In this document: piece after piece, positions 2,074 through 63,600 of the stretch | Layout of the letters: each line of letters begins with the position of its first letter | How positions within the stretch are numbered: position 1 is the first letter of the stretch | Assembly (NCBI RefSeq): GCF_028502605.1 | Contig: NC_079236.1 | Span: forward strand, 1,550,001-1,614,000 | Source: Trichoderma breve | Lineage: Eukaryota > Ascomycota > Sordariomycetes > Hypocreales > Hypocreaceae | Length of the DNA: 64,000 bases | Direction: 5' to 3' | The notes under the pieces: model-generated | Told to the model about the DNA's origin: nothing | Database searches by the model: none | The model's input: the letters and a program-made list of their open reading frames with translations, nothing else | Program-made: the position numbers and the translations under genes

Positions 2074-2632
2074 CTACGCTTCCTTGTTACGTGCCGAAAA
2101 TAAAGACGTGAGATACAGCCCGACAAACATCATGATGATGTTGAGCAACAGCGTCACGCTCCAGTGACGGCCCTGGCCGGGGATGGGACCATCGCCACCG
2201 AGTGTCCTGCCGGGCGTCTTGAATACGTCCTCGACTTTGCCACCGTCGCTGAGCGAGACGGCCTTTGTGATGGCTTCGGTCAAGGCTGACGGGTTGGCGC
2301 CGCGGATGGTCTCGACGGCCGTGCCGTTGTGGAAGATCTTGAACGTGGGCATGGCAGTGACGCCTTGGCTGCGGGCGATGTTGGCTTGGTTGTCGACGTT
2401 GACCTTGGCAAAGGCCACCTTGTTCGGGCGCGAGTGCTCCTTGGAGAGGCGCTCAAAGTGCGGCGCAATCATCTTGCAGGGACCGCACCAATCGGCGTAG
2501 ACTGTGATGCTTTGTTAGTCGGGCTGGCGCAAAGACCGGACGAGATACCGTACAATCTGCGACGACGACGGTGGTTCCTGACAGCAACGTCTGCCACTCG
2601 CCGTCAGATCCGATGTTGATGGGGCCGCTCAT
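2074..2632 (-). CDS. Thioredoxin-domain protein with C-terminal membrane anchor
   Basis: Two exons (2632-2554 and 2501-2074) encode 168 residues. The 52-bp intron starts GTACGG, has a CTAAC branch site and ends CACAG. The thioredoxin fold occupies about residues 1-110, with the redox motif WCGPC at residues 31-35, the following lysine KMIAP, and the cis-proline region AMPTFKIF. A second region (about 140-162) is a hydrophobic helix, LLLNIIMMFVGLYLTSLF, followed by a short charged tail (SARNKEA). The protein is therefore probably a tail-anchored thioredoxin with its active site facing the cytosol. Soluble cytosolic thioredoxins of about 105 residues lack this extension. Orientation is inferred from the absence of a signal peptide. 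The start is set by MSGPINIGSDGEWQ, which leads directly into the fold. Confidence 0.85.
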
Positions 2633-3389: not shown

Positions 3390-6300
3390 TTAGTTACGTG
3401 TGATCATAGCCTCACGGTCTGGACCAGTACCGATCCATTTGACCTGCTCAAAATTAGTGCATACTTCTTTGAAGCCAGTGCAAGCGACGCCATATTAGGC
3501 AAAGAAGCCAACCAACCTTTACTCCAATGAACTTTTCGATGTACTAAAGAGACAGTCAGTAAATATAATCAGATCCATTTATAGTTAAAAATTGATGTAC
3601 CTCGATGTAGTCCTGGGCCTGCTTGGGAAGCTCATCGTATGTCCGGGCGTTGGTCGTCGGCTTGTTCCACCCAGGCATTTCGTGGTAAACGACTTCGGCG
3701 TTATCTAGAATGTTATGGTCCGCCGGATAATAGTCAAGATCCTAATACTTTCAGCTATGCCTCAAGACTTCGGCCCACAACAGCTTCCTACCTGGCCTGT
3801 GCTCTTGTCTTTGTATGCAATGGCGATCTTGATTGTCTCGAAGGAATCGAGTACATCGAGCTACATCAAGAGTCAACTTTTGAATCCCATCAGAGCAGTG
3901 AGAAGATCTTGTAAGGCTTACTTTGGTCAAGTTCAATGCAGTGTAGTAGTTGACCATGTGGCCGTGCTTCACAACAACGAGATCTATAAAGTCCAAGTAA
4001 GTATCGACCAGGTTTAATACGGCGAGGTGTTAACATACCGAGCCTATACAATTAGCTATGTACCCGATATTTTTAATAGAGAGAGAGACTTACCAACCAC
4101 AGCGACGTTTTCGGCCTGTGGATGTTCCCCATTCTCGGCCCACCTCCTGGAGTTTTGTTCCGACCCTGTTAGGTACATGGTCAGTCTGCTTCGATTCCAA
4201 CGTTGAGTAGTAATAGGGTGACAGTACTCTTCGAGATCTTCCGTCTTGAAAGCGCCAGCGCCAACACGTGTGGTATCTATAATCATCAGCATCTGCTATA
4301 AACCATTGTAGATAGTTAGAGGTAGGGGGTTGCTTCGATATAGCTACTGGCCAAAAGGTCTAGTGATTACCCATATTACTTACAGGCTTTTACCACTCCG
4401 ATAGTCTCTGTAATGGCCTTGGGGTTGAGCGTTAAGCCAGCGATGATGCCAGAAATTGCGGTATTGGATGAAGTGACATAGGGGTATGATCCCATCGAAA
4501 GGTCGAGCATTACAGCCTGTTGGTACCAAGACAAGTAAACCACCTGGTCACGTACTCCGAAGCCTTAACGTGGACAGAGCGGCGGTTGACATGGCAGGAC
4601 GTGGCCACGTCCACATTATATTGTCTCTTCGCCGATGCCAGAGGTTATGAGCTTCAAGTACATGACGGCAGGCAGGTTACCAGCCCGTTCAGGTCAGTAA
4701 ATAACCAACTTGCTAGGAGCTGAAGACGAACATTTGCACCCTCGATAATGATGTTCATGTTGCTCGTTTGACTATAAGAGTTAATTAGCTTCTTGCAATA
4801 TTTATGAGGGAAAGGTTCGCCGGAAAACAAAGGAACAGATATTGATCCATTCATCTGCTTCTCTCGATATCACGCCGCCAAGGCTACCTACGCAGAATAC
4901 ATAAAGCTCAAACCATCAATGGCATACTTTGCGAGCTCCGTACGGTATCCTCGGAATCTCTTAATCTCTTCCTCGACATCATACTTGAGCAGATCGCCGT
5001 AACGGGCCTTGTAGCCATGTGCCAGTCGACGCAGTTTTGATTCGAAGAGTTCTTGGTCGAACACATCGGCTAAACGAATTCCACTTCTCTAATCTTGGTT
5101 CAGTAAACGGTCAGTACTCTGGGATTTTAAATGCTTACAGCAGCCTTGGTCTATCAAGGTCAGTGTCAGTATGAACGCATAGATTTATCTGACGATAATG
5201 CGAATATCTGCTTACACTATACGAGGGTCCGTTCACAATAATGTTAGCTTATGTGGTGAAAGATGTGAACAAGGTGGACTTATAATTCCGCGGCCAGTGG
5301 TGCCGATTTTGCGCTCTGGCCAAGTTAGACGTGAACAAACGCCCCGACTATAGATCGCTTACCTCCTAGCTCAATCTCCTCGAGACCGTCGACGGCGGCG
5401 TGAAGGTCAAAGTTGATATGAACCTAGGTGTCACAAGTCAGCAAGTATATGACATAACGCAGTACCGCAGTGTTGCCTGGGTCACTGACTCTGTCAGACA
5501 CAAGGATCCGATCATAGACATTGGGAAGTCCTTTCTATTTATGATATCAGCAACGATTTCTTGATAGTTGCCAGGTCGATAAATACCTCTTCAAGTTGCT
5601 TCAACTCTGAGAAGAACGAAGGGCTAAAAATGGTCAGCATTGCGGTTATGCATCGATAGGCCAAACGGATTGCATGTTGAGCTGAGCGGCGAGACGAGAC
5701 TCGCATAAAAGCACGGAACACTGGACTTGTGGGACTTACACATGAAAGACTCTGTTGCAATCGGATGCCGTTAGTATAGGTAAAATGCTTGTTCAACACT
5801 TACTCGTCTTGAAGAGAAGTAAGTTCAAGCGACTTACACATCGGAGCCGATGAAGTTCATGCTACCATCAAGTCAGCATCTACTCGTCAAAGGTGGGCTT
5901 AAATCGACAACGTACCAGTTCGGGTTGATGAGACCAGAAGGGAGCAGGTGAAAGCTATTGTTGGTCAATTAATCGTTTAGTTGACAAGCCGGTGCTTTGA
6001 TTCGGCGTCTGCATACCTGTACGAGACACCGTTGGCGCTGTGACAGTGGCGGTCAGCGATATAGTTCATAAGTCATGGCAGAATAGCACGGCGGACGAGA
6101 CTCACACAATAGAGTGACCAGCATTATGGCCTCCCTAGAATATCGGGTCAGTATTTTGTATACGCAGTCGCATAGGATGTTGGCTTACAGCGGCCCTCGC
6201 GCTATCATCCAGTTAGTGTCTATTCCTCGTAACTTCGAACTCGTTAAGAGGGAATAAGTTTCAATTTCTGAACACTTAAGAAGAGTTTAATCAGAGGGTG

Positions 6301-6662
6301 GAATATGGTCCAGAATGATACCATATTGCAAGCATATTATTTGACTCCTTGCCATATTCGCCCTCTGTTGGCTCTCACTCATATCCAGAAACAACACAAA
6401 CAACAACCTGCTTCCCCATAAGGAACTTACCAGAGTTGAGCTTCAGGCGCAAGAATATCAACTAATTTGCCTTTCTGGCGTTTAATAGGTCAGTTGAGTA
6501 CTCAAAATGACATATCAGATGGTCAGACGCACTCCTTCATCGCCTATGGAAACACAATTGAGTTAGCGACAAGACGTCTGCGTTACAACCCGCGCGGGGT
6601 AGCAAATAAGGGAAAGAGAATGACAAACCCCATTGGGCACCCAAGACGACCTTGATAGGCAT
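3390..6662 (-). CDS. Adenylosuccinate synthetase, ~26 exons with micro-exons
   Basis: The enzyme joins IMP and Asp using GTP, the first committed step of AMP synthesis. Spliced by eye, the gene reads from [12 protein letters not shown] (ATG at 6662) to [15 protein letters not shown] and TAA at 3392-3390, about 430 residues, the usual family length. Conserved sites are present: GDEGKGK (catalytic Asp), [10 protein letters not shown] (catalytic His), [36 protein letters not shown] and [12 protein letters not shown]. The protein appears intact although coding DNA is only about 40% of the span. I infer 26 exons, with micro-exons at 6543-6533 (11 nt), 6201-6189 (13), 5751-5740 (12), 5230-5216 (15), 5150-5139 (12) and 4043-4039 (5). 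The intron at 5283-5231 begins ATAAGT and ends AC; the others checked are GT-AG. Neighbouring genes have zero to five introns. It is divergent from the SPOUT methyltransferase gene at 7823. Junctions need cDNA confirmation. Confidence 0.92.
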
Positions 6663-44468: not shown

Positions 44469-45640
44469 TTAACCATGTATACGCTGGAAGGTACCAGCGC
44501 GACGAGGCTTAGCAAAACCGTCAGTAGACGACTGAATGAAGCCAATTTCCATCAGATAGCGCATGCTCATTTTAACAGCCATGTGCCACTGCTCATGTTC
44601 AACCCCCTCGACTTCAATTTCTTCGGCAGACCGAACAAGGCCAAGATTACCAAGGAAGTGCTGCACAGGCCATAGGGGATGCTTGTCGCCAATTTGGTTC
44701 ATTGATTCCAAGGCTCGGTGAGTCCATTCCTCCGAAGGAAGAGGCTCGCAAGGAACTTCAAGCTCCTTGTTAATGAGGTCCCAGAAGACTGTGGCCGGCA
44801 TACCACCATTGACACCGACGAAGGGTGCGATGCTTTCCTTTGTGTATAATTGGCTGAGCACAGATGATGCAACAGTAGTAACGTCAACAACAGAGAGCCA
44901 ATGCTCTTCCGGCTCTGAAGGATAGGCGCGAAGGGATGCAGCGGTAGAAACAACACGCCACAGCATATCATCCACGTTGGCTACACCAGTCTCAGGCGAT
45001 CCAATGATGCGGCCGGGTTTGAGAGTAGAAACACGGTTCTGATCATCGGGGAGAGTATTGATAACCTCTTGAATAACGCCCTCGGAAACAAATTTGGTCT
45101 GACTGTAACCAGTGGTATGACCGAGATACTGCGCGAGAAGAGCGCGATCTTGAGTAGGATCCGACTTGATACCACCGGAGACGAAGACAAACTTGGTAGA
45201 AGCAGAAGAGTTGACAGCAGCCTTGAGGAGATCGATAGTGGAGTCAACATTGGCAGCACGCATCTTGTCATAGTCGGCATTCCAGTTTACGATGGCACCG
45301 TTGTGGATGATGGCATCGACATTGTTGTTAGACTGGCCGGCTAGGCGTGCCCATTGCTCATTGCTAAGACCTATTCGCTTCTTGGCCAAGTCACCACACC
45401 AGATCTCGATCTTACTCGTGTAATCTTCACGCCACCAGCCAGCAATCTTGGCAGTCTCGCGGATACGGTCTAGGCCGTGGTCGACGGACTTGGATCGTAC
45501 GAGAGTTATGATTGAAGCAATGGCATCGTTGGAGATGAGTTGTCTGAGGATCTCTTGACCGAGGAAACCTGTAGCACCAGTGAGGAAGACAACAGCTTGG
45601 TCAGGCAGATCGGTTTTAGGATGGGCGGCAACATTGAGGG
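44469..45640 (-). other. NRPS terminal thioester reductase domain
   Basis: The C-terminal ~360 residues form an extended short-chain dehydrogenase domain. VVFLTGATGFLGQEIL is the NADPH-binding loop (45560-45600). FVFVSGG and YSQTKFVSE supply Ser and the Tyr-x3-Lys catalytic pair. This replaces a thioesterase and releases the peptide by reduction to an aldehyde, then an alcohol. Confidence 0.9.
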
Positions 45641-48600
45641 CACCAGTATCCAATAAAGAGCGAGAGAGAGACGAAATTTCAGCATTGAAGTCGATACTGC
45701 TTAATTGCTCCTTTTCTTGTCCGGCGAGTTCATTGTCGATGTGCTTGGCCATATTTGTAATCGTGGTGTGCTTCGAGTTGAGGAGGGACATACCAAGGGA
45801 AACACCATACTGGCTGAGGATAGCCTTAGAAATGGTCACAATGCGGATGGAGTCACCACCGAGGCTATAGAAGTTGTCGTCCACACCAATGGTATCATCG
45901 GGAAGGTCAAGTGTAGTGGCCCATTGGTGTCGAATCCAGAATTCAACATCGTTCGAGCAGTCGCGGAAAGGTACACGTTGGACAGCGAGGTACTTCGAAA
46001 GATCGTCAGTCGTGAGGTTGGTTATAGACTCGAGGAGCATCTTTCGATCCAATTTGCCAGCAGCATTATGAGGCATGTGGTCAACAGGTATGAAGTACTT
46101 GGGAATCATGTGGCTAGGCAGTGAAGAGCTGATGCTAGTGACAATACCAGAGAACGTTTCGTAAAGCTCTTCAGTCAGCTCTGTGAGGTGAATCTCCTTG
46201 GAAGCACTCTCTGTCTCTTGCTGTGAGTTGAAGCATATGAAGGCGAAGAGCGAATCGCGGCCATCTTTTCGAGTGATGTCGACTACGGCGTGCTCAATGG
46301 CTGTGTCGGAACGCTTGATGTGGTACTCAATCTCGCCAAGTTCGATACGTTGACCACGGATCTTGACTTGAGTATCCTTGCGGCCGAGATACTCGATGGA
46401 GCCGTCTGAAACATAGCGGACCAAGTCACCGGTCTTATAGAAGCGGCGCTCTCCCACGTCAACATTAGATGGCAACCATTTGACTTCTTCAATAAATGAT
46501 TGTCTAGTTTTCTTTTCGTCGTTGATGTAGCCACGAGCCAGCGATGAACCTTGTAGTAATAGCTCACCAACGCAGCCGATTGGCATAAGTTGGTCATGAT
46601 TATCAGGGTCAACAACCCAGAGACCATGTGCAAAGCTGCGGCCGAGGGTGGTAGCTGAAGCTGTCGAGGTTGATGAGTAGGTGAAAATAGTCGAACCAAT
46701 GCAACCTTCTGCTGGACCATAACCGTTGTGCAGATCTACCTCGTTGACCCAAAACTCGATGATCTCTCTAGAAGGAGCCTCGCCTGCGAGGACGATAGAC
46801 TTCATTCCAGGAATTTGTTCCGGAGATAGAGTCTTGATGAATGTAGGAGTCAGGACCGCATAATTGATGCGAGCACCACGTGTAAAGGCTGCAGCGTTGT
46901 GCAAACGTTCATGCTCAGTCGGTACACAAACAGTAGCACCCATGATTAGTGGGTTAAATATTTCAAAGATAGAGCCGTCGAAGACATAGTTAGCAAATTG
47001 AAGCATCCTCACGTCGTCGTTAATTGAGAAGGCTTCACTTTGCCTGAGGAGCGCCGCGGAGATGGCCTTATGTTCGATAATGACACCCTTTGGCTTACCA
47101 GTTGAACCGGAAGTGAAGAGAACGTAGGCGGCGTTGTCGGGACCTGGCATCACTAAATGCTGTTTGATTGTATCTATAGCAGAAATGGACGCAATCAAAG
47201 ATGGAGAAAGCTCGACTGTGTTTTTGACCATGTCCTGACTGTCGGGGGCGGTCATCGGTGATACAATCATGAACTGGGCGCAAACTTCATCAATCAAAGC
47301 CTGGCGACGGCTTGTTGGATGTGATGGATCAAGTGGGATGAAAACACCGCCGGCTTTAAGAATTCCCAACATTGCTACAATAGTCCATGTTGACTTTTCA
47401 AAGCAGAATGGCACAATAGTCTCAGGTCGGACACCTAAGCGGCTGAGGTAGACAGCAAGCTGAGTTGACAGATGGTCAAGCTCGCCATAAGTCATGCTTC
47501 CTTCAGTGCTGTATAGAGCTTCATGATCTGGTCTGCGGGCTGCCTGCTTGGAAAAGAGGCCATGTAGAGTGATATCGGCAGGACCATATATTTTGTTATT
47601 CCACTCGAGTTGTTTTTGAAGCTCCCAAGATCCAGCGACTTTGATATCGTCAATCATTGTATCATTTTGAGCACCAAGCTGTTTAGCGACATTGCTGAAT
47701 TGCTCAGAAATGGACGTAGCTTGGAATTCTGTCACAACATTGCTATCGTAAATCAGTAGCAATTGGAAATGATCATCCATGATAATAACTTGAAGAACCA
47801 ATGGATAGTCAGAAAAGTTCTGCAAGGAGCTTTCGGTGGAATGCTCAGAGCTGGCGGGTAGTAAGAGAGCATCAGTATTGGCCACTTCGTTCTCGTCAGC
47901 AGCCTGTTGTTGAACAGGCTGGATGATAAGCAAACTAGAAAAGTCGCATGCTTGCTTAGCTTCAGCGCCCAGTGCAGCGATGTTTTGGAGACCAAACTGC
48001 TCATACGCAACCATTTCTGACGCTTGTTTCTGCATGTTATGCAAGAACCGCGACGTTGGCTGATCCTTATCAAGACGGACGCGGACAGGAACAGTGGCAA
48101 CCATAGGGCCAGGCATAGAGTCTAAACCAGGAACAGAAGCATGGCGGCCGGAGACTATTGTACCGAAGCATACATCATCAGTCCCGGAGTATTGAGCTAG
48201 AATAATTGACCAGGCAGCTCGCATGATTGTAGCCTTGGTGATAGAGGTGTTTTTCAATCGTGGGAAGTCAACATATTTCGTCGATATCCGGGTCACATCA
48301 ACCTTGCTATCTTTGGCAGCAAGTTGCTGGTTAACTGCTGGGAATGAAGCCGGCTTGGCATCATGAAGTTGCTGTTTCCAGTACTCTGCAGCATCATTTT
48401 GATCGATGTTCGTCGCGTATTTGACGAAGCGGGCGAAAGGCTGCAGAGGAGGCATTTCCGTGCCAAAGTAGGCGGCATAGAAAGTGGACATGATAAGTGG
48501 TTGTGTCCAGCCATCATACACAGAGTGGTGAATATGCCAGGCAAAATAGCTATCACCGCCATCCTCGATAAGAGCATAGCGGCAGAGACGAGAGCCATAG

Positions 48601-51600
48601 CCCATGTTGAAAGCTTGGATTGCATTTTGCATATAAGACTGCAGCGACACATCCTCGGTAGGTTCCCACAAGGACTCTGAACTGCATTTAATCACAGCTT
48701 GGATAGTCTTAAGGCCAACAAGAACAATAGAAGTTCGGAGATTGAGGCAGACCTCGACAGTCTTGTCCCAAGCTGCCTTGAACTTCTCAATGTCGACCTG
48801 CTCAGGAATACGGTACACGTGCTGCGCTGTATAGGAGCCTGGCTGTTTGACAGATAAAGCCATAAGACCTTCCTGTAGTTTGGTAGTAGGGTAAGCATCC
48901 TCAATAGACTGAGAGGTAGAGAGATTGCATTGTTGCTTGATTTCGCCAATGACAGCTTCACGCTCAGAAGGGTAGATTAAGCTAAAAGGCTCGGCTTCAT
49001 ACGTGTCGGTGGCATGACCAAGGCCGGCAGATGCAGCAAGTGAAGATAGTCTGGGGTCGGCGAAAATGTTTGCCACAGTGAGCTGGATACCATGCTCTTG
49101 AGCTAGGGTAACCAAATGAATAGCTGAGATAGAATCGCCTCCAACTTGAAGGAAGCTATCGTTCTTGCCAATCTCTTCTGTGGGAATCTTAAGAATCTGG
49201 GCCCAGAGATCTCGCAGCTTGAATTCCATATCAGTTGTCGGCTCAGTCTTGTCTGCTTTGCTAGGAGCAAATGTGGCGAGCTCCTCAGATAATAGAGAAC
49301 CTGCAAGGGCTTGTAGCTGCTTTCTATCAAGCTTCATAGATGTGATAAAAGGCATGCATTGGAGAGGGAGAATGATACTGGGAACCATATAACCGGGGAG
49401 AGTGGCCTTCAGACTCTCTCTTAGACTACCGAGCGTTGCTCTCATCGCATCATCAGAAACAAGTAGATTAAGGCGCAGGTCATCAGTGACCCATTCCGCG
49501 CTCGCATCGCCAATAAACGAGACAAAAGCAATCAGTGCATCGCCAGCCTGTCTATGAAGAACATCAACAGCGACGTGGCGGACGCTCTCAAGTGACTGAG
49601 TGATGGTGTACTCGATCTCACCAAGCTCAAGACGCTGGCCTCGTAGCTTGACTTGAGAGTCCTTTCGCCCGAGGTACTCTAATTCACCATCTGCGTTATA
49701 GCGGACAAGATCTCCGGTGAGGTAGAATCGCTTTGGCTCGTGCAGGAGAGAAGATGGAAGGGAACCAATTTCGCTGACGAATGACTCTTCCGTCCTTACT
49801 TTGTCGTTGAGATAGCCGCGAGCCAGAGCATGACCCTGAAGGACAAGTTCGCCTATACAACCTATAGGCACGAGCTTGTTGTGATTGTCTGGTTCCACAA
49901 CCCAGCAGGCACCATTGAAACCAGACCCAATAATACGAGGAGATTCAGCACTGGACTTGAACATGTGTGTCGTGGCGTAGTTGCAGGCCTCAGCAGGTCC
50001 GTAACCGTTGAACAGAGTAACGCGGTCAACCCACATCTCCAGAATGCTCTTAGAAGCAGCCTCGCCACCGAGAACAAGAGTCTTCAGGTGTGGCACCCTA
50101 TCTGGCGTAAAAGTTCTTACAAAGGACGGCGTTAACATGGCTGTGTTGACCCTGGCTTTGTGCATAAAGTCGGGAGCGGATTGAAGGCGCTCATCATCAC
50201 TAGGGATACAGATGGTTCCACCAAAGGCTAATGGCCCAAAAATCTCACCAAGACTACCGTCGAAGATATAATTGGAGAACTGGAAGATTCTCGACGATGG
50301 GGAAAGGTTATAAACCTTGCCATATCCAATGGTTGTAGAGCTGAAAGAGCCATGCTGCATGACAACGCCCTTTGGTTTACCCGTCGATCCAGAAGTGAAC
50401 AAGACGTAAGCCGTGTTCCTCGGTCCAACCTTAGGGAGAACCTTGGGAGTTATAGAAGTGGCAAGTTTGCTTATTACACTGGGTGACAACTCGACGATAT
50501 GCTCAGCCATACCAGCGCACGAGGCGATAGCATTAGAAGACGCGATGAGCACGCGAGCATTAACTTCCCTGACTAGTGTTTCACGGCGACCGATTGGATG
50601 CGACGGATCAAGAGGTACAAAAGCGGCGCCTGCCTTGAGAATAGACAGAATTGCAACTACAGCCCACATTGATTTCTCGAAGCAGAACGGTACGACTGTT
50701 TCTGGGCCAACATTCAACGAGCTCAGATGCGTAGCAACGATATCGGTCAAATGGTCAAGTTCACCATAAGTGAGGCTACCTTCTGAAGAATAGATGGCCT
50801 CGTGATGAGGGCTGTTAGAAGCATGCTCAGCGAACATGTCGTGAAGGCAAGTGTGAATGAAATCAGGCTTCTTGCTGTTCAGTTGCACAGCCTGTTGGGC
50901 ATCCCAAGGCCCTGAAACACACACCTCACCCAGCATTTCGTCGCCCTGGGCAAGGAGTTGCTGGACAACATGGTCAAATTGATGCATGATAGCGCTTAGT
51001 TGAGCTTCGCCAAGGACATCAGAATCATAGATGAAAACCAAATTGACGAGGTCCTCCAAGAGGTGACACTGGATAACCAGGGGATAAGAGAAATAGTTTT
51101 GCAACATTTCTTCTGCCTTAACATCGGGTGAAGCAGCGGGAATTACAAGGGCATTCTGTTCACCGGAGATTTTGCTATCAGCGCTCGTATGCTGACCGGG
51201 TTGGATAGCCAAGAGAGATGTGAAATCACAAGCATCCTTTTCGTCAGAACCAAGTCTAGAGATATTTTGGATGCCAAACTGTTCATAATCGACCATGTCG
51301 GAAGCCTGTGATTGTACATCTTGAAGGAATTGAGTGAGAGGCTTTTGCTTGTCAAGGCGAATACGAACAGGAACGGTAGCGACGACAAGACCGGGCATAG
51401 ATTCAAGGCCGGTTACATCAGCATGACGACCCGAGACTGTGGTACCAAAGCAGACATCGTCGCTATCTGAGTAGCGTGCAAGGACAATAGCCCAGGCAGC
51501 ACGTAAGATAGAAGCCTTTGTGATAGACGTGTTTATTGACTTGGGGAAGTCGATAGCCTTATTCATGACACGAGTCTGAGAAGCTCCAGACTTGTCACTA

Positions 51601-54600
51601 GATGGCGGGAAGCTTGCCCGTTTGGCACCGTCAAGTTGCATCTTCCAATACTCGGAAGCGCTATTGTTGTCCAGATCCATGGTGTACTTGACGAAAGTAG
51701 CATACGACTGTAGAGAAGGAAGCTCAAGACCGTAATACGCTGCAGACAACGTACCCATTATCAATGGAAGAGACCAACCATCAAAGACGGTATGATGAAT
51801 GCTGAAAGCGAAGTAATTACTAACCTCTTCCTCAATAATCGCATAACGACACAGGCGCTGAGCGTATCCCATTTCGAATTGGAGCGTGTCACGAGCATAA
51901 GTTCCAAGGGAAACATTAGAGGTATCATCCCAAGCAACATCATCCTTGAGTATGACTTGTATGGTAATACCATGTACAATAATCATGCGCGTGCGCAGAT
52001 TGGCACAGCTTAGAACGGTACGCTCCCAAGCAACACGGAATTTCCTAATATCCACATAATCGGGAAGTTGATAGAGATACTTGGCAATGTAAGATCCAGG
52101 CTGCTTGATTGCGAGGGCCATAAGTCCTTCCTGTAGCTTTGTGCAGGGATAGGCATCCTCAAGCAGATCATCTCCAGAGAGATGACACTGCTCCTTCGCA
52201 GCATCAGAGATGAGAGACTTGGTAAGCGATTCTTCAAGCAAGCTAAAAGGCTCGATAATTGTAGAAGTGTTGATGCGACCAGAGTTGTCAGCAGCAACTA
52301 AGGCAAGCTTGGAAAGGCGAGGATCGTCAAAGATATCCTTAACCGCAATAGAGATACCAGCCTCACGAGCGTTTGTAACAAGCTTGATAGCCGTAATTGA
52401 ATCACCGCCAATTTGCAAGAAGCTGTCATCACAGCCAATTTCTTCTTTGGGCATGTGCAATACGGCAGACCAAAGCTCTTGCATGCGAGTTTCCATTTCG
52501 GTCTCGGGTAAGCGCTTGACGCCGTTGCGCAGGGAATAGGCAGCATAGTCATCTTCATTCAATTCAGAAACGAGCCTCTTTAGTTTATTTCTGTCAAGCT
52601 TGGTGGACGTGATGAAGGGCATGTAGCGACATGGAACGAAGAGCGAAGGTACCATATACCGAGGTAGCGTAACATTGAGCTGGCTGATCATCTTGGCAAG
52701 CTGTGTCTGAAGCTCTTCTGTTATAGGTAGGAAAATATCTTCATCTGATTGAGAAATACCGGCAGTGCGCGTTTCATCAGAGAAACAGATGTATGTAATA
52801 AGTCTTGTTCCAGAATCAGTCGTGAAAACGTCAACGGCAACTTGACGAGCGCCTTCAAGGCCACTCCGGACGTGATACTCAACTTCGCCAAGCTCCACAC
52901 GAAGGCCGCGAATCTTGACTTGTGTATCCTTCCTGCTGGAGAATTCAAGTGTGCCATCGGTATTGTATGAAGCCAAATCACCGGACTTGAAGAATCGCGA
53001 CCAAGAGGGTTGATCTCGGTATGGTGCCCAGGCAGGCAGCTCATACATTGTGGTGGCTTTAGTACGCTCGACGTCGGCGAGATATTCCCGTAAGATTGTT
53101 GGACCTTGGATGACAACTTCGCCCATTGTGCCGATAGGGGCGAGCTTGTTGGGATTTGTCGGGTCTACGACCCAACAGAAGCCTCCTACAGGACGGCCAA
53201 TTGTTAATGGCGACTCATCCACGGATTGGAACTCATGCAGAGAGCTGAATAGACAAGTCTCAGCAGGACCCCAACCGTTCCACAATCGAACTTTACCAAA
53301 CCAGGTGGTAAGTATGTCGCGAGGGACGGCTTCACCAGCTAATAGCAAAAGGGTGACCGAGGGGATTTGGTCCGGACTCAAGGTCCGCACAAAAGATGGT
53401 GTGAGCAAAAGAGTGTTGATTTCATGCTCAGCGATGAATTCTTTCAGACCATTCATACGAGTATGCTCAGAAGGAATGAACATACAGGCGCCCGAAATCA
53501 GTTGTAGTATACTTTCGCCAAGACACAGGTCAAACACGTGCGATGCAAATTGGAGCGTCCGGTTACTTGAGCTGATACCCATTCTCTTCCTGATAGCAGT
53601 CTGGCTGGTTGCGAAACCACCATGGGTCATTACTAGACCCTTAGGCACGCCCGTAGATCCGGAAGTAAATAACACATAGGCGGCGTTGTGAGATGAGACT
53701 GGGATCTGAGGATCATTTGCGCCGAGCGAGCTGTTGATCTTCTCGTACAAGGCAGGAGAAACTTCAACTACTTGGTCGATAATACCGGAAATCAGACTTC
53801 GGGTATTATTGGATACGAGAGCCAACTTAGACTGAGTTTGCGAAGTAACCTGGCGGATACGTTGCTCAGGATGGGATGGATCTAGAGGTACCCATACAGC
53901 ACCAGCCTTGTTGATAGCAAAGATAGCTACCCAGTACCAAATAGATTTTTCGAAGCAGACGTGGATGAGATCCTCAACTTGTACGTCATACTCATTAATG
54001 AGATAGTGGGCTAGCTTATTGGCTGCTTCATTAAGCTGACCATAAGTCAACTCCCCATCCCAGGCCCAGATAGCTGGCGAGTCAGGAGCTTCCTTTGCAC
54101 GCAGTTCGATAAGATGATGGATACAAGTGTCCATAATCTCTAGAAACTCTGAATTAAACCCAGTGGCACGATGAAGATCCCAATCGGATGCAACTGTCAA
54201 GTCGCCTAATGTGTGACCTTCGTCTGTGAATAGCTGCGAGGCCACATGCTCGAATTGATAGCATAGTGCTTGCATAGACAATTCAGAGAGCTCTGAAGAG
54301 TCATAGGTCATAACTAACTCAATTGAATCACTGAGGAGGTGGCCCTGGACAACAAGAGGATAAGAAAAGTAACCTTGCATCGCTTCTTCAGCTGAATTGC
54401 CCTCAGTATAAGCAGGCAACAGTAGCGAAGATGATGTAGCTTCAGCTTCATCAGGGGTTCCTTTGCCGCGTGAGTCCAAGTGAGTTCGAGGCTGTACAAC
54501 CAGCAAACTCGTAAAGTCACACGCTTCCCTGAAGTCGGGGCTGATCTTTCCAATGTTTGACAAACCATATTGCTCATATGGAACCATCTCATGAGCTTGA

Positions 54601-57600
54601 TTCTGGATAGCCTGGAGGTACTTGCCAATAGTCTGTGTCTGGTCCAGACGTACACGCACGGGAACAGTTGCGACCACAGGACCAGGCATATCCATGAGAC
54701 CCGACACTGAAGCTTGTCTGCCAGATATCGTTGTACCGAAAGTTATGTCATCAGTATCGCAATAACGTGCGAGTAAAATAGCCCAAGTCGCGCGTATTAT
54801 TGTAGCTTTAGTGATAGCGGCATTAGCTGAAGCAGGAACTTGGATTGTCCTGGTGGTGACTCGTGTGACTCCATTTGACATGGAAGTTGCCGTGACGGGA
54901 GGATAAGATGCCTTGCTGGCTCCTTGAAGCTGTTGAGTCCAGTACTTGACGGTATCTTGGGGATTGATGGCCGTTAGATATCGAATAAAGCCTGAGTAGG
55001 GTCTAAGTACAGGCAACTCCAAGTTATGATAAATACTCTGGAAAGTAGTCATTATAAGACGAACAGTCCAGCCATCGTGAACTGCGTGATGAATTGTCCA
55101 GAAGAAGTATTTGTCTCCATTGTCGTCATCAGCCAGGAGAATTTGAGAAAGGCGAGAACCATAGGTCATCTCGGTTTTTTGAGCCGCCTTGATGATGCTA
55201 AGGGCATTCTTGTGTTCTTGAGGCTGCCAAACAGAATCCTCTTTGATGACTATCTGTATGCACTTGCCGTCAAGGAGAACTATTCTAGTACGCATGGTAG
55301 TACAGAGCGATACAGTACGTTCCCAGGCCGCCTTAAAGCGGGCAATGTGAACGTCTTGAGATAGTCTGTAGGCATATCTTGCAATGTACGAGCCCGGCTG
55401 TTTTACCGAAAGAGCCATTAGACCTTCTTGGAATGTAGTTGTCGGATAGGCATCCTCAACTTCTTCGTTGACTGCCAAGCCGCAAAGGTTGCGGACCTCA
55501 TCGCTGACAGCTAGGTTGTATAGAGTAGTATCAACGATGGAGAATGGAGTGGTATCGACGACGGACATCTGCTCGTCCTCTCCAACCTCTCGAGATTTGC
55601 CAGCAACGGCAGATAGACGCGGGTCGTCAAATATTTCTTTGACAGAAAGCGAAATACCAGACTCTTGGGCGGCGCTGACCATGTGAATCGCAGTTATGGA
55701 ATCGCCACCAAGGCCCAAGAAGCTATCGTCACGACCGATGGATTCAATCGGAATTCCAAGTAGCTCAGACCACAGCTTCTGGAAGAAGACTTCCATTGGA
55801 GTTTCTGGGGATCGTTTCTTCTCGCCAAGGAGGGAATATTGGGCGATTTGCGCCCTTTCTAGTGCCCCAGTGAGCGTTTTCAGCTTATTACGGTCAAGCT
55901 TAGTTGAGGTGATGAAAGGCATGTAACTGCAAGGGATGAACATTGTGGGAATCATATATCGAGGCAGTGAAATACGGAGCTGGCCAGCAACTGATGCCAA
56001 TTGAGACTGCAAATCTTCGTCAATTGGCAAGAATAAATCGTCAAAAGCATCACTGCTAATGCCTGCAGTTCGAGTCTCATCGCTGAAACATAAATACGCG
56101 ATAAGATTTGTACCATTTTCGCCCTGATATACGTCGACAGCGACTTGTCTGGCCGTAGGAAGTGCCTGTTGGATATGATACTGAACCTCTCCGAGCTCTA
56201 CACGTAAACCACGGATCTTTATTTGGGTGTCTTTACGAGTTGCGAATTCAATGGTGCCGTCTTGATTGTAATAGCAAAGATCGCCAGACTTATAGAATTT
56301 ATTCCAATGTTCGGCATCAGGGCGGGGCGCCCAGTTGGGAAGATTATACACAGTGGAAGACTTAGTTCGTTCAGGATTTGATAGATATTCGCGTAATAAG
56401 GTCGGACCTTGAATAACAACCTCTCCAATCGTTCCGGTTGGAGCTAGGCGATGAGGATCTGCTGGATCAACAACCCAGCAGAAACCACCGACTGGCTTAC
56501 CAACTGTAAGAGGAGATTCGTTGACTGACTTCCATTCGTGGAGTGTTGAAAATACACAGGTCTCAGCAGGCCCCCACCCGTTGATTAAACGAACCTTGCC
56601 AAACCAGGTGGCTAAGACGTCCTTCGGCACAGCCTCGCCGGCTAGTAGAACAAGCTCAAGTCCTGGAACTTCTGCTGGGTCAATTGTACGGATGAATGAA
56701 GGCGTGAGGAAGGTCCAATTGATGTCCATTTCTCGGATAAACTGGGTGAGGTTATTCATCCTGGTATGCTCCGACGGTATGCATAGACAAGCGCCTGTTA
56801 TTAAAGGTGCGACTATCTCGCCGATAGAAAGGTCGAACACAAAGGCAGCGAATTGTAACATGCGTACATCGGGTGTCAGACCTAGTCTTTTGACAATAGC
56901 TGTTTGAGATGTGCACACGGAGCCGTGCTGCATGACTAGACCCTTTGGTATACCCGTTGATCCAGAGGTAAACAAAACATAGGCAGCATTGTCTGAAGCC
57001 ACAGTTGTTGCCGGGCCCCTTTGGCTGTTTTCCTCAATTTCGGATAGCAGTAGATCAAGTTCCGAGCTTACAGTAACCACGGACTCGACCAAACCAGACA
57101 TCAAGTCTCTGTTGGCAACCGAAGTTAGCGCAATCGTAGCACGCGTCTGAGACACGACTTGTCGAAGTCGCTGTTCCGGGTGAGTAGGATCGAGGGGCAC
57201 CCAAGCAGCGCCTGCTTTATTTATAGCCAGGATAGATACAAAGAACCAAGCTGACTTCTCAAAGCAGACGTGTATTAAGTCATCTGTTTTGATGTTATAG
57301 CTGGCCGTAAGATAATTGGCGAGTCGGTTAGCAGCACGGTCGAATTCAGAATAGGTCAAGTCCATGTCCCAAGCCCTAATTGCCATTGCATCAGGACGAA
57401 TTTTGGCTTGGTTTTCAATAAGCTGATGAACACAAGAGTCGACAATATCAGGGATTTCAGAATTAAATTTGAGACATTGTGCGACATCCCATTCAGAAGC
57501 GATAGAGATTGATCCGAGGGCCGATTGAGGTTCAAGGATTAACTGCTCAACAACATGTTTAAATTGCTGAGAAAGGGCAAAAAGTTGTTCCTCTGGCAGA

Positions 57601-60600
57601 GCAACAGAGTCGTAGATTAGTACAAGATTGATGAAGTCCTCATGTAAATGAGCTTGGATAACCAATGGATATGAGAAGTAGTTTTGCATGACTTCTTCCT
57701 TGGTTTCGACCGCAGATTCAGGAGTAGCCAGCAGAGTCTCTTCGTCCTCGTTATTATATATTATATTTTGCGTTGGCTGAATAACAAGAAGTGATGAAAA
57801 GTTGCAAGCATCTTTCGCATCTACACTCAATTTGCCGATATTCTGAAGACCAAACTGCTCGTAAGGAAGCATTTTAGTAGCTTGGCCTTGAATGTCTTGA
57901 AGGAAGTCATCCACAGACTTTTGCTGATCTAGACGAACTCGGATTGGCACCGTTGCGATAACTGGTCCCGGCATCTCCATCAATCCCGAAACAGGGGCTT
58001 GTCTACCTGAGATTGTCGTTCCGAAACAAACGTCATCTGTATCGCAGTAGCGTGCAAGGACCATGGCCCAGGCTGCACGAAGGATAGTGGCTTTGGTGAC
58101 GCCCACGGTGGTCTGAGGTAGATCGATTCTTGTTTCCATGAATCGCGTCACGTCGCTCTTATCAGACGCCTCAATCGAAACAGTAGACGGAAACGTAGCC
58201 TTCTTAACATCGTGAAGTTCCCTCATCCAATACTCGCTAGCATCTTGATAACTCATATCCATCGTATATTTGATGAATCTAGCATAGTTTTCGACTTGAG
58301 GCATTTCGAGACCTCTATAAGCGCTGTGTAGAGCGCCGAGAATGATGGGCGTTGTCCAGCCGTCGAAGACGGCGTGATGAATGCTCCACAAGAACTGGAT
58401 ATCCTGGCCCTCTTCCTCGATCAGTGCGTAACGGCAAAGGCGAGAGCCATAGCCCATTTCTGTCTGTTTAGTAGCGTGTAGATACGACATTAATGTCATG
58501 CCAGTCGTATCCTCCCAGGCGATATCATTATTGATCACAGTTTGAATTGCCATGCCGTGAACATTGATAATCCGAGTACGCATATTAGCACACAGTCTAA
58601 TAGTTTGTTCCCAAGCATTCTTAAATCGGGCTACATCGATGTAAGCAGGCAAGCGATAGTGGAATTTGGCAATGTATGAGCCCGGTTGCTTCACAGCTAA
58701 AGCCATCAGACCCTCCTGCAACTTAGAGCAAGGGAACGCATCTTCGATTTCCATATCAGTTGATAACTGGAGACCAAGTGAGTTGCTACGAATCATGCTC
58801 TGGTGAGCCTCATCAATAAGGGCAAATGGCTCAATGACAACAATTTCTTTAACATCCTCACTTAGGCTCGTCGCTTTAGCTGCAATAGCAAGGAGTCGAG
58901 GATCACTGAATATATCGTCAACGCTGATAGAGATGCCGCTCTGACGGGCCTTGGCAACGAGGCGAATAGCAGCGATGGAGTCACCACCGATTCTCAAGAA
59001 ATTATCGTCACGACCGATTGAGGTAGTGGGAATATTCAGAACGATGGCCCAAAGGTTTTGCAAGAGGTGCTCCATCTGAGTCTCCGGCTGCTTTTTATCG
59101 TCATCGATGAGAGCATATTCTTCAAGCTGTTCTTTAGCTAGCGAAGCCGTAAACTTTAGTAAAAGTTTTCTATCGAGTTTACCAGAAGTGACGAGCGGCA
59201 TGGCCTTGCAAGGAATAAACAAGGTGGGAACCATATATCCGGGCAAGACAACATTGAGATGACCTAGTAAACTAGTAATATTATCTTTGAGTTTGCCCGT
59301 TAGTCGCAAGACAATATCATCGCTCGTCAGATCGCTAGTCATGCTAGCCGGAAGCGTATCGTTATTGAAGCAGACAAATGATACAAGATTGACAGCAGCA
59401 TCAGTCTCAAATACAGCCACAGCGACCTGTCGGACGCCATCAAGATTTTGGCGGATATGATGCTCAACTTCGCCCAATTCCACACGCAAACCTCGAATCT
59501 TGACTTGCGTGTCTTTTCGGCTGTAGTATTGGATAGTTCCGTCAGGGTTATACCTTGCTAAATCACCGGTCTTATAGAACCTGTTATAGTGGCGAGAGTG
59601 GCGATGAGGAGCCCAATCAGGAAGACTAGTAACGATTGCTGAGGCAGTCTTATCTTTGTCTGCAAGATATTCGCGAAGCAAATTAGGTCCTTGAATAACA
59701 ACTTCTCCAAAAGTACCTGTTGGGGCTAGCTTTTGCGGATCTTCAGGGTCAACAATCCAGCAGTAGCCACCAAGTGGGCGTCCAATTGTCATATACGATT
59801 CGTTTATAGACTCCCATTCATGTAAAGAGCCAAAAACACAAGATTCAGTAGGACCCCAGGCATTAAACAGACGAAGTTTGCCAAACCAAAGCTCGAAAAC
59901 ATCCTGGCTAACAGCTTCACCACCGAGCATCAAGACCTCCAAGCAAGGGGCTTCGTGCGGATCTATGGTGCGCGCCAAAGAAGGGGTTATCAGTGCCCAT
60001 GTGACATTTTCCTCGCATATATAGCCTGCTAGTGAATTCATTTGCGTCTTCCAAGACGGAATACAGACACAGGCGCCTGAAATGAGCGGAGCGTATATTT
60101 CGGCAATGCTTGCGTCAAACACAAATGACGAAAATTGAAGCATTCGAACACCAGGAGCATGGCCGAGTCTCCTGCTGTAGGATGTTTGACTGCTACAGAG
60201 AGCTCCATGTTCTATAACAACGCCCTTGGGAACACCAGTTGATCCAGAAGTAAAAAGTATATAAGCCACATCTTGGGGCGTAACGTTGGTAAACGACTTC
60301 CTGTCGTTATATTGCTCTGCCAAGGCATCGATAAACTCTTCTGTCACCTCCAAAACGCGGGCTACTAGACCAACACATTTATCAAAATTAGCTGTGGAAG
60401 TGAGAGCTAATTTTGATCCTGTTTGGCCAACAATTTGCTGGTGGCGTTCAGCAGGATGTGACGGGTCAAGAGGAATCCAAGCAGCTCCAGCTTTGTTAAT
60501 TGCTAAAATCGAGACCACATACCAAGCCGACTTCTCGAAACATACATGAACAAAGTCGCCAAGTCTTACGCCCATGGACTGAATGAGATAATTTGCTAAT

Positions 60601-63600
60601 CTATTAGCAGAACGATCCAATTCGGCGTAAGTAAATTTGGCATCCCAAGCGCTTATAGCTTCAAGGTTGGGATTGATGAGGGCTTGTTGCTCAATCAAAT
60701 TGTGGATGCAGTCATCGATAACAGCGGGTTCATCATGGTTTGCGGCACGTGAGAACTCCAAGTCCCATTCGCTTGCCACTGAAATGCTGGATAGAGAGCT
60801 ATTACCTTGTCTAAGGAGTTGAGAAACCACATGTTCGAATTGGTGAGACAGGCCAATAAGCTGGTGTTCAGCAATAATGTCGCAATCGTAGACAAGGACA
60901 AAATTGACGCTGTCATCAAGCAAATTGCACTGCAGAACCAAGGGATAATTGAAATAGTTCTCGAGCATCTCAGCAGTTTGAATGTCCTCAGCTATAGCAG
61001 CAGTGAGAATGGCCTCTCCCTCGTCGCTGCCAGTGGATGTGATATGCTGGACTGGCTGCACGACTAACAAGCTAGTAAAGTCGCAGGCTTCCTTAGCTTG
61101 GGCGTTTAGTTTGGATATGTTTTGGATACCAAATTGCTCGTAAGCGACCATTTCAGAGGCTTGTGACTGGATACTTTGTAAGAAGTTATCCAAAGATTGC
61201 TCCTGATCAAGCTTAACGCGAACCGGAACAGTCGCAAGGACAAGACCAGGCATCCGCTCTATTCCAGGAACAGGGGCATGACGACCGGAAACAGTAGTTC
61301 CAAAGCAAATATCATCAGAATCATTATATCGTGCGAGCACAATAGCCCAGGCGGCTCGGAGGACGGATGCTTTTGTGATTGACGTGTCGGTAGATCGTGG
61401 AAAGTGGATTGTCTTGTTCATCACACGAGTCGAATTCTCCAACTTTTTGCTCTGGATTGCTTCACTTCCAGGAGGAAATATGGCTTTCCTAGCGCCAGAA
61501 AGCTGTTCACTCCAGTATTTGCTGGCGGCGCTATAATCCATATCCATCACATACTTCACAAAGCCGGCATATGGGAGGAGCGAGGGAACATCAGTGCCAC
61601 GGTAGAACGCGTGAAGCGTACCCATTATCAGAGGCAAAGTCCATCCGTCGAAGATAGTATGGTGGATATTCCAAGCGAAATATTTCTCTCCATCTTGGTT
61701 GATAATAGCATATCGGCAGAGAGGCGAACCATAGCCCACTTGGGAATTTTCTGCGGACATGATGAAAGAGCGGAGATCAGACGACGTATGCCACTCAACA
61801 GAGTCTTTTATGACAGCTTGGTAGGCAGAGCCATCAACAAGGACAAATCGCGTCCTGAGTGCTGCACAAGCTTCAACCGTCTGATCCCAAGCATACTTGA
61901 AGCGCTCGATATCGACACCAGAAGTAAGGCGGTATAGATGTTTCGCAATATATGATCCAGGCTGTTTGACTGCTAGAACCATCAGACCTTCCTGTAATCG
62001 AGTGCAAGGATAGACATCTTCGATAATTGCGGTGAGGGAAAGATCGGTGCACTGAGATCGTACTTCGGTAAAGACGGCATCCATGACAGAGGCAGGGATG
62101 ATGCTGAAAGGCTTAGTTTCGTATACGGGCAGGATTTCATCAGTGTTAGCAGCTTCGGCCATGTGCGATAAGCGAGGATCGTTGAAGATGGTAGCCACTG
62201 TAAGTGCAATATTGTTCTGCTGTGCCAAGGAGACGAGCTTAATAGCGCTGATTGAGTCTCCTCCAATGCGGAGAAAGCTATCATTCTTGCCAATAGACTC
62301 AGGATCAATCTGTAACACCTGGGCCCATAGTTCTCTAAGCTTGAATTCCAGAGGAGTGCTTGGTGGTTCACTCTTTCCAACAACAGGCGCAAATCGCAAG
62401 CGATCGTGTGTTGATAAGTTGTGGGCGTGAGCGAGCAGAGCATTGCGGTTGATTTTACCATTAACCGTCTGTTCAGGTTTACCCTCAAACAGCAGATAAG
62501 ATGATGGAATCATATAGGAGGGCAATACCATTCCGAGCGATGAGTCAATGTCAGAAATCGTAGAACGAGCATCGTCTGTAACGGTTTCCAGTAAATGGAG
62601 AGTTGACTGAGCGGCTACTTCGCCTTCCGTGTACCATAAGAAAGCGAACAAATTGTCATGCTCTTGTTCATCCTTGACAACAGCCACGATAGCGTCCATA
62701 TTCTCTGGCAGGAATTCGTGGATACGTGACTCGATTTCGCCAAGTTCGACACGCTGACCATGAAGCTTGACTTGGGTATCTTTACGGCCAATAAAATCGA
62801 AAGTACCATCAGCGTTGCGTCGAACTAAATCGCCAGTCCTGTAAACTCTCTTTTTACTGTCCCCTGGAAGCCAGTCGACATTCTGCATCCAGTTGGACGC
62901 AACTTCGGCGGTGACATTTAGATATCCTCGAGCAAGCATTGGGCCTTCAATAAGAAGTTCACCGATGCATCCTATAGGAACAAGTCTCTTATAATCGGTA
63001 GGTTCAACTACCCAGAAAGCTGAAGAAATTGGCCTTCCAAGATTAGTTGACCGGCCAATCTTACCAACAGCAGGATTCCAGGCACAGATAGAAGCTTCCG
63101 CAGGGCCGTATAAGCCATGCACTTCGGTGTGACTGATCCAGCGGTCTGCACATCTCTTACTAATGGCCTCGCCACCCAAACAGAGAACCTTGAGATCAGG
63201 AACGTCAGCTGGTGAGAGAAAATCCGCTACCGTAGGCGTAAGGAACACCCAGTTGGCCTTTGTTGCATTGATAGCCCCTGCAAGGTCATTGAGACGAGCA
63301 TGGTCCGACGCAATGCAAACAGTTGCGCCACGCATAAGAGAAACGAGGCAGTCTAGTACGCCAACATCGAAGGTATAGGCAGAGAACTGGAATACGCGCG
63401 TGCCGGGTCCGATGTTGAGGTCGCTACCATAGGCATTTCCAGAAGAGCACAAATTGTTGTGCTGGATGACCATTCCTTTAGGCTTTCCAGTTGATCCTGA
63501 TGTAAATAATATGACGCTTGCATCATCTGGCTGTACCACAGATTTGATACCGCCCGCGGGATCAGATAGCTCAATTAAAAGAGCCTCATCGACAGCAAGT

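What the first reader, a model, noticed from the sequence alone, without database searches (positions are those of the whole stretch)
3390..6662. Adenylosuccinate synthetase gene shattered into ~26 exons
A purine-pathway housekeeping enzyme of ordinary length is encoded in about 26 exons over 3.3 kb, with introns making up more than half of the span. Every other gene in the window has zero to five introns and the 19.5-kb NRPS frame has none. All conserved motifs survive splicing, so the gene looks functional. Such density is unusual for a filamentous ascomycete and could mean retained ancestral introns, transfer from an intron-rich lineage, or splicing-dependent regulation of AMP synthesis.
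Basis: seen in the sequence. Interest (0 to 1): 0.8.

Follow-up and report, generated by a model that had tools for sequence, protein, structure and literature searches.

The report
Purine enzyme gene in 26 pieces
In a fungus of the genus Trichoderma, the gene for an ordinary purine-making enzyme is cut into 26 short coding pieces, one only five letters long, by 25 introns, one of them with rare end letters; a sister gene in the same genome is cut almost as finely, so the crowding is real but not unique to this copy.

Summary
On the minus strand, 6662..3390 encodes a 425-residue adenylosuccinate synthetase (AdSS) in 26 exons; [quoted passage not shown] The genome is most likely Trichoderma breve. 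Orthologues differing at 3 of 425 residues lie on contigs of at most 1989 and 1557 nt, too short for the unspliced 3270-nt gene, so relatives splice it.

Three things were missed. (1) The genome's other AdSS, on contig C6 and probably the housekeeping copy, has 25 exons; 15 intron positions agree in place and phase, so most of the crowding predates the duplication. (2) Intron 5283..5231 is AT-AC (ATAAGT...GCTAAC...GTGAAC), U2-like, not U12-like; no GT/GC-AG path gives the protein. Faulty public gene models suggest the same intron in Clonostachys, Nemania and Neoarthrinium. (3) Both copies need a 5-nt exon.

The density is 17-24 times published euascomycete means and about 3 times the human mean, far above the figure for the ascomycete ancestor, so gain within the AdSS lineage seems likelier than retention alone. 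The tree suggests movement between Hypocreales and Xylariales. Why introns gathered here, and what the second copy does, stays open.

The parts
3390..6662 (-). whole gene: AdSS paralogue B, ATG at 6662, TAA at 3392..3390, 26 exons, 425 aa
6629..6662 (-). exon 1, 34 nt
6533..6543 (-). exon 2, 11 nt (P-loop DEG..)
   Evidence: both flanking introns shared with C6 copy
6431..6474 (-). exon 3, 44 nt
6189..6201 (-). exon 4, 13 nt
6106..6134 (-). exon 5, 29 nt
6017..6037 (-). exon 6, 21 nt
5916..5954 (-). exon 7, 39 nt
5838..5861 (-). exon 8, 24 nt
5740..5751 (-). exon 9, 12 nt (V-FHV-), skipped in the public T. breve model P0121
5587..5623 (-). exon 10, 37 nt
5490..5534 (-). exon 11, 45 nt
5363..5423 (-). 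exon 12, 61 nt
5284..5315 (-). exon 13, 32 nt (ends GRGI)
5231..5283 (-). intron 13, 53 nt, AT-AC: ATAAGT at 5' end, GCTAAC branch-like site, GTGAAC at 3' end
5216..5230 (-). exon 14, 15 nt (GPSYS)
5139..5150 (-). exon 15, 12 nt (TKAA)
4892..5088 (-). exon 16, 197 nt
4732..4771 (-). exon 17, 40 nt
4384..4516 (-). exon 18, 133 nt
4228..4276 (-). exon 19, 49 nt
4094..4165 (-). exon 20, 72 nt
4039..4043 (-). exon 21, 5 nt (GCTCG; completes W, codes L, opens D of RCGWLD); a 5-nt exon at the same place in the C6 copy (L009 3388..3392)
3922..3983 (-). exon 22, 62 nt
3792..3860 (-). exon 23, 69 nt
3601..3741 (-). exon 24, 141 nt
3517..3543 (-). exon 25, 27 nt
3393..3443 (-). exon 26, 51 nt; stop TAA follows at 3392..3390

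Best explanation
This is a working second copy (paralogue B) of adenylosuccinate synthetase. It makes an ordinary 425-residue enzyme that joins aspartate to IMP on the way to AMP. The 25 introns are short and are removed, by inference, by the ordinary U2 spliceosome acting across introns ('intron definition'), which is why exons of 5-15 nt are tolerated. One intron has A and C in place of G and G at its first and last positions but is otherwise U2-like; I infer that the two changes compensate each other. Most of the crowding was present before copies A (contig C6) and B parted, since 15 introns are identical in place and phase and two more are one base apart. The remaining 8 (B) and 7 (A) introns were gained or lost since. 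Because the density far exceeds the mean reconstructed for the ascomycete ancestor, intron gain inside the AdSS lineage of Sordariomycetes is the most likely main source. Shown here: exon structure, shared positions, intact enzyme sequence. Nearly shown: splicing in close relatives (from contig lengths). Inferred: gain rather than retention, spliceosome type, function of the second copy.
For: 26-exon model stable to penalty and query. Full-length PF00709 and PDB matches. Orthologues P0042 and P0048 (3 of 425 residues different) with longest contigs of 1989 and 1557 nt, while the unspliced gene is 3270 nt. Two AdSS loci found in the genome, by PF00709 and by a Pyricularia protein. C6 copy with 25 exons, 1 of 424 residues different from T. 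semiorbis P0001; 15 introns, of 25 (window) and 24 (C6), at the same place and phase, hypergeometric P 1.5e-22. Selection on both copies: dN 0.19; third codon positions 54% different, second 12%. AT-AC: 0 GT/GC-AG solutions of up to three introns give GRGIGPSYSTKAAR; with AT and AC ends allowed in any mix, only AT-AC does. Gene-model errors in AdSS outside clades A and B: 20 of 31 distinct ends lie within 1.34 residues of a known intron position against 22% expected, P 5e-7.
Against: No RNA of T. breve was examined. I saw the 'lgn' proteins and their longest contig lengths, not the contigs or species; the contigs leave up to 714 and 282 nt beyond the coding sequence, so removal of most introns is forced but removal of each one rests on the predicted protein. 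No genomic DNA of another fungus could be read; intron positions elsewhere are inferred from gene-model errors. Gain versus loss is unresolved: fungal ancestors were intron-rich, and a position private to C6 (317) has an error beside it in P0110 (318), which would mean loss in B. Twelve of 35 (B), 13 of 27 (A) and 11 of 31 (other) distinct error ends do not lie near a known intron. dS (4.0) is saturated.
Confidence: 0.7

Rival explanations
1. Retention: the gene simply kept the introns of an intron-rich fungal ancestor while other genes lost theirs.
For: Fungal ancestors were intron-rich with widespread later loss (PMC2246297, passages). Fifteen positions are old enough to be shared by both paralogues, and error ends in other clades fall on the same positions more often than expected.
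Against: 19.6 and 18.9 introns per kb CDS against at least 2.77 as the mean of the reconstructed ascomycete ancestor and 6.7 in human. Eight and seven positions have no counterpart in the other copy.
Confidence: 0.25
2. Degenerating pseudogene whose frame breaks look like introns.
For: The frame is broken 25 times; a second copy exists that could do the work.
Against: The spliced product is full length and 99% identical to orthologues. dN is far below dS. Orthologues occur on contigs too short for the unspliced gene. The clade spans several genera.
Confidence: 0.03
3. Intron 13 is not AT-AC; a GT-AG intron inside it is used and the protein carries a seven-residue insert ([16 protein letters not shown]), as some public models say.
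For: P0103 and P0125 are annotated in that way; the T. breve DNA would give [16 protein letters not shown].
Against: That intron would be 32 nt, shorter than all 49 introns of the two models. P0042, P0048 and models P0041, P0044 and P0079 read GRGIGPSYS. The loop carries no insert in the two solved AdSS chains shown.
Confidence: 0.06
4. Horizontal transfer brought an already intron-dense gene into Trichoderma from another fungus (compatible with the best explanation).
For: Clade B is patchy (T. harzianum group, T. virens, Clonostachys, Neoarthrinium, Nemania serpens). A tree holding the Hypocreales B genes and their Dactylonectria and F. zealandicum neighbours together without the Xylariales ones is rejected, p-AU 0.0014, though the group was named after the tree was seen.
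Against: The C6 copy is nearly as dense, so transfer does not explain the density. A Trichoderma-only or Trichoderma plus Clonostachys grouping is not rejected (p-AU 0.43 and 0.35), so direction and recipient are unknown. Hidden paralogy with loss would look the same.
Confidence: 0.3
5. The second copy is kept as an inhibitor-tolerant target (self-resistance) or as a conditionally spliced copy that tunes AMP synthesis (compatible with the best explanation).
For: AdSS homologues sit in some Hypoxylon biosynthetic clusters (PMC12616698, passage). Each of the 25 introns, if kept alone, brings a stop or a frame shift. Trichoderma virens has a glucose-switched microexon in Xlr2 (PMC11121469, passages).
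Against: Neighbouring frames match thioredoxin, RNA methyltransferase and lipoyl synthase; the NRPS frame ends about 38 kb away. No residue change pointing to tolerance was tested. No splicing data.
Confidence: 0.1

Closest known systems
Basidiomycete alpha-amylase genes of bacterial origin (PMC3584928, passages)
   Same: One gene family with far more introns than its genomes' average (8-22 per gene, mean 13.3, at 64 positions), read there as massive gain
   Different: Basidiomycetes with 3.8-5.7 introns per gene; here an ascomycete enzyme of purine synthesis, 24-25 introns in about 1.27 kb of CDS, and a duplicated pair
Phanerochaete chrysosporium P450 genes (PMC1184071, passages)
   Same: Many short introns (45-55 bp) and microexons down to 6 bp
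   Different: Basidiomycete, 6-14 introns in the CYP63 genes; here a 5-nt exon shared by two paralogues
AT-AC type II (U2-spliced) introns (PMC7072748 and PMC3033335, passages)
   Same: AT and AC ends in an otherwise major-type intron
   Different: AT-AC of any type is 0.019% of annotated fungal introns; here apparently kept across two orders. Trichoderma longibrachiatum RNA-seq reports 69 AT-AC of 14305 junctions (PMC4324775, passage), so AT-AC junctions are not new to the genus
Xlr2 microexon of Trichoderma (PMC11121469, passages)
   Same: Very short exon in Trichoderma missed by a public gene model
   Different: That one is 20 nt and switched by glucose; here ten exons are 30 nt or shorter, with no data on switching
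Stwintrons (PMC5639578, passages)
   Same: Unusual intron architecture that persists across Sordariomycetes
   Different: No nested intron is needed here; intron 13 is one 53-nt intron

Membership tests
Adenylosuccinate synthetase (PF00709) | full-length match to the family profile | tested here: met
   residues 5-422 on profile 1-416 of 416, E 5e-168
Adenylosuccinate synthetase (PF00709) | motifs GDEGKGK, GHNAGH, GTTGRGIGP, TTRVG, RCGWLD, LTKLDVLD kept | tested here: met
   present in the assembled protein and aligned with two solved AdSS chains, same or nearly the same letters; the motif list and its catalytic meaning are recalled
Adenylosuccinate synthetase (PF00709) | enzyme activity | not testable with these tools
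   needs complementation or assay
U2-type AT-AC (type II) intron | AT at 5' end and AC at 3' end | tested here: met
   5283..5231; no GT/GC-AG alternative gives the conserved protein. A one-base shift (TA-AA) would code the same residues and is disfavoured only by its ends (worked out by hand)
U2-type AT-AC (type II) intron | 5' site and branch site like major introns | tested here: met
   ATAAGT, and GCTAAC with the branch-like motif 17 nt from the 3' end; by inspection, no scoring against a U2 model
U2-type AT-AC (type II) intron | removed in RNA by the major spliceosome | tested here: inconclusive
   removal supported for close orthologues by P0042 and P0048; spliceosome not tested
U12-type intron | 5' ATATCC and branch CCTTAAC (as given in PMC3033335) | tested here: not met
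   ATAAGT and GCTAAC instead
U12-type intron | U12 and U6atac RNA in the genome | tested here: inconclusive
   no hit for RF00007 or RF00619, but nothing rang in the 14 controls either; U6 gave one partial hit below cut-off
Introner-like repeated introns | intron sequences similar to each other or copied elsewhere in the genome | tested here: not met
   best core-to-core score 13 among 49 introns against maxima of 10-15 in 30 shuffles; the gene's DNA finds only itself and four stretches of the C6 gene (best candidates only)
Pseudogene | frame or splice sites broken, relaxed selection | tested here: not met

The most novel reading that the evidence does not exclude
AdSS genes of Sordariomycetes are a hot spot of intron gain. 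[quoted passage not shown] It kept a 5-nt exon in both paralogues, and in paralogue B fixed a paired G-to-A and G-to-C change at the two ends of a U2 intron that has since been kept across Hypocreales and Xylariales.
Probability: 0.45. Interest if true: 0.75.

Novelty: new variant of a known kind. Interest (0 to 1): 0.58.

Why it matters
Why introns accumulate in particular genes is an old open question, and this family offers two paralogues in one genome, many species and about 34 positions on which gain and loss can be counted. The AT-AC intron would be a natural case of paired first-and-last-base changes in a U2 intron. In practice, automatic annotation fails here: 15 of 16 orthologue models examined are wrong at the AT-AC site, including the public T. 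breve model P0121.

Tried and rejected
Pseudogene: rejected. A third, intron-poor AdSS: none found with PF00709 or with a Pyricularia AdSS; both searches score only the best candidates. Introner-like elements: no similarity above shuffled controls. U12 intron: sequence does not fit; RNA searches uninformative for lack of a eukaryote control. GT-AG-only models at exons 13-15: none. Genomic DNA of other fungi: viral contigs with P0041 gave no relative; genome contigs with P0001 kept the best 80 of 587 relatives, with prokaryote titles at 38-44% identity; viral contigs with P0073 gave 16 loci at 27-43% identity; none was of use. Literature on AdSS introns in fungi: two searches listed 2 and 3 papers, none on this by title; AT-AC with Trichoderma listed 5; microexons in fungi 5. 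I found no report of this gene's structure in those listings; that is no proof of absence, as subscription journals are missing. A link to the NRPS as one cluster was dropped for distance.

Weak points of my own tests. The aligner rewards splice-like and branch-like motifs, so their presence in the model is partly built in. The artefact test chose its 1.34-residue margin by hand, counts related species, and treats every indel of 4 or more residues as an error. The AU test group was named after the tree was seen. The hypergeometric test assumes random insertion sites. Only the top 120 rows of each protein search were visible. For the 65-row tree I chose 63 of the 174 fetched proteins by hand plus the two assembled ones; no basidiomycete was among them. 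The 24-row tree used 22 plus two. The comparison with other genes of the genome by Pfam pieces is crude: it does not see exons this small.

Full report
Identity. The window is C5:1550001-1614000 of a 38.5-Mb, 9-contig genome. Protein P0121, named Trichoderma breve, lies on a contig of 4198595 bases, exactly the length of C5, so the genome is most likely T. breve.

Gene structure. A spliced dynamic-programming alignment of T. harzianum P0041 to the minus strand gave 26 exons. The count is the same for 5 of 5 intron penalties from -4 to -18, and Fusarium, Pyricularia and paralogue queries return the same donor sites apart from one extra upstream piece with two of them. Eight control stretches of the window score 13-67.5 (with 11-21 spurious exons) against 2136.5. 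All junctions are GT-AG except one. Between GRGI and GPSYS the aligner had to insert residues. The DNA there reads ATT|ATAAGT...GCTAAC...GTGAAC|GGA, a 53-nt AT-AC intron. A search of all ways to remove up to three GT/GC-AG introns in that region gives GRGIGPSYSTKAAR 0 times; with AT and AC ends allowed in any mix, 2 solutions appear, both with this AT-AC intron. With it the gene encodes 425 residues; introns take 1995 of 3270 nt. Six of 26 exons are 15 nt or shorter and one is 5 nt. Kept alone, each of the 25 introns would bring a stop or a frame shift.

Is it used? P0042 and P0048 are 425-residue proteins differing from the window protein at 3 residues each. Their longest contigs are 1989 and 1557 nt. 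The unspliced gene is 3270 nt, so they must come from spliced copies; the spare 714 and 282 nt would hold only a few introns, and untranslated ends must fit there too. The source tag 'lgn' is not explained by the tool; I take it to be assembled public reads (recalled). Both read GRGIGPSYSTKAA and RCGWLDL, that is, with the AT-AC intron removed and the 5-nt exon kept. This concerns close relatives, not T. breve itself.

The paralogue. PF00709 finds AdSS at two places, the window and C6; a Pyricularia AdSS finds the same two. The C6 copy (C6:2002692-2005436) has 25 exons, 24 introns, 424 aa, one residue off T. semiorbis P0001. Fifteen introns agree in place and phase and two more differ by one base; the window has 8 others and C6 has 7. 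Both copies carry the 5-nt exon. P0041 and P0001, which stand for the two types, are 76% identical. Between the two T. breve copies dN is 0.19 with saturated dS, and second codon positions differ far less than third (12% and 54%), as for two selected enzymes.

How dense is it? 19.6 and 18.9 introns per kb CDS. PMC2246297 (passages) gives 0.81-1.16 for euascomycetes, at least 2.77 for the ascomycete ancestor and 6.7 for human, in conserved regions of many genes. PMC7072748 (passages) gives 1.49 introns per gene for fungi. In this genome, matches to other metabolic families come in longer pieces: up to 263 profile positions for IMPDH, 282 for Lyase_1 and 72 of 162 for argininosuccinate synthase, in 1-3 pieces per place, some with stops inside; the AdSS copies give 4 pieces each, the longest 84 of 416. 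The window's oxoprolinase frame runs 1304 codons open. A single gene set against genome means is not a test, but the gap is wide.

Wider family. In a 65-row tree of ascomycete proteins window-type genes from the T. harzianum group, T. virens, Clonostachys rosea, Neoarthrinium moseri and Nemania serpens form one clade (100/100), with Fusarium zealandicum and Dactylonectria next to it. The C6 type groups with Trichoderma, Escovopsis and Ophiocordyceps (100/99). Xylariales genes nest inside: a tree holding the Hypocreales genes of this wider clade apart from them is rejected, p-AU 0.0014, but Trichoderma alone or Trichoderma plus Clonostachys is not (0.43 and 0.35). Movement between orders and hidden paralogy with loss both fit.

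Reading other genomes through their annotation errors. Gene predictors seldom allow AT-AC ends or 5-nt exons (recalled). Of 16 B-clade models given to the test, 15 are wrong at the AT-AC site (P0079 is right); P0041 and P0044, outside that set, are right. The wrong peptides hint at the DNA: wrong splicing of the T. breve sequence would give [16 protein letters not shown] or [14 protein letters not shown], and the models show GRGIITNITVNGPSYS (T. afarasin), GRGIITNFTVNGPSYS (T. virens), ELGANITVNGPSYS (T. harzianum, T. cf. simile) and ELGANFLLNGPSYS (Neoarthrinium); Clonostachys P0120 reads on as GRGIISLP, and the two Nemania serpens models read GRGII and then jump. These are what an ATAAGT start or an AAC end would give, though other codons are possible. 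In the B clade 23 of 35 distinct error ends, in the A clade 14 of 27, and in other clades 20 of 31 fall within 1.34 residues of the 34 union positions (32 if the two one-base pairs are merged), against 22% expected (P 4e-8, 7e-4, 5e-7). Loss of the P-loop DEGK stretch in Sodiomyces models and of residues 306-309 (CGWL) in Thelonectria and Dactylonectria models is most likely error, since these are conserved motifs, and points to the same tiny exons there. Four Fusarium models go wrong at 133, close to the AT-AC site.

Mechanism. The introns are short, and 22 of 25 have a branch-like motif within 30 nt of the 3' end (no shuffled control, and the aligner rewards such motifs). Fungal spliceosomes recognise such introns as units (recalled), so exon length is little constrained. 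The AT-AC intron has a major-type donor context and branch, not ATATCC and CCTTAAC (PMC3033335, passages). First and last intron bases are known to act together in yeast, and A with C can replace G with G (recalled, not looked up); this intron looks like a natural case. T. longibrachiatum RNA-seq lists 69 AT-AC of 14305 junctions (PMC4324775, passage), so the genus can apparently splice them.

Origin. Seventeen shared or nearly shared introns put about that many in the ancestor of A and B. A density far above the ascomycete ancestor's mean favours gain in this family before and after the split; some unshared positions may be losses. I found no repeated intron family, so the source of new introns is unknown. 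What copy B is for is unknown: neighbouring frames belong to general metabolism and the NRPS frame is about 38 kb away. A resistant-target role is a lead only (PMC12616698, one passage).

Verdict. It is a new variant of known things: an intron-dense gene, microexons and a U2-like AT-AC intron.

Noticed in passing
G000:C6:2002692-2005436 (L009 2692-5436, minus): Second AdSS gene with 25 exons, 24 introns, all GT-AG, including a 5-nt exon at the same place; probably the housekeeping copy, since orthologues of many Trichoderma species head the list.
   Followed up: yes
   Followed up: yes
AdSS family, tree: Several AdSS clades mix Hypocreales and Xylariales (for example Nemania diffusa with Metarhizium; a clade with Fusarium, Trichoderma, Stachybotrys, Verticillium and a Xylariaceae, many of whose members read QTSRARTGI), suggesting repeated transfer or paralogue loss of a housekeeping enzyme.
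   Followed up: partly
P0134, P0136, P0142, P0166 (Fusarium AdSS models): These models break at GRG|IGP, about one codon from the AT-AC site; an intron a few bases away may be the ancestor of the AT-AC intron by sliding.
   Followed up: no
window 44472-63998 (minus): 6509-codon open frame reaching the window's edge; in the 4000 codons scanned, 4 AMP-binding, 3 condensation and 4 carrier stretches, with a weak SIDD_N match below its cut-off.
   Followed up: partly
window 2074-2514 (minus): Thioredoxin frame downstream of AdSS-B, with a first exon upstream by eye; in T. harzianum P0122 the two genes are fused in one model, so the order is kept there.
   Followed up: partly
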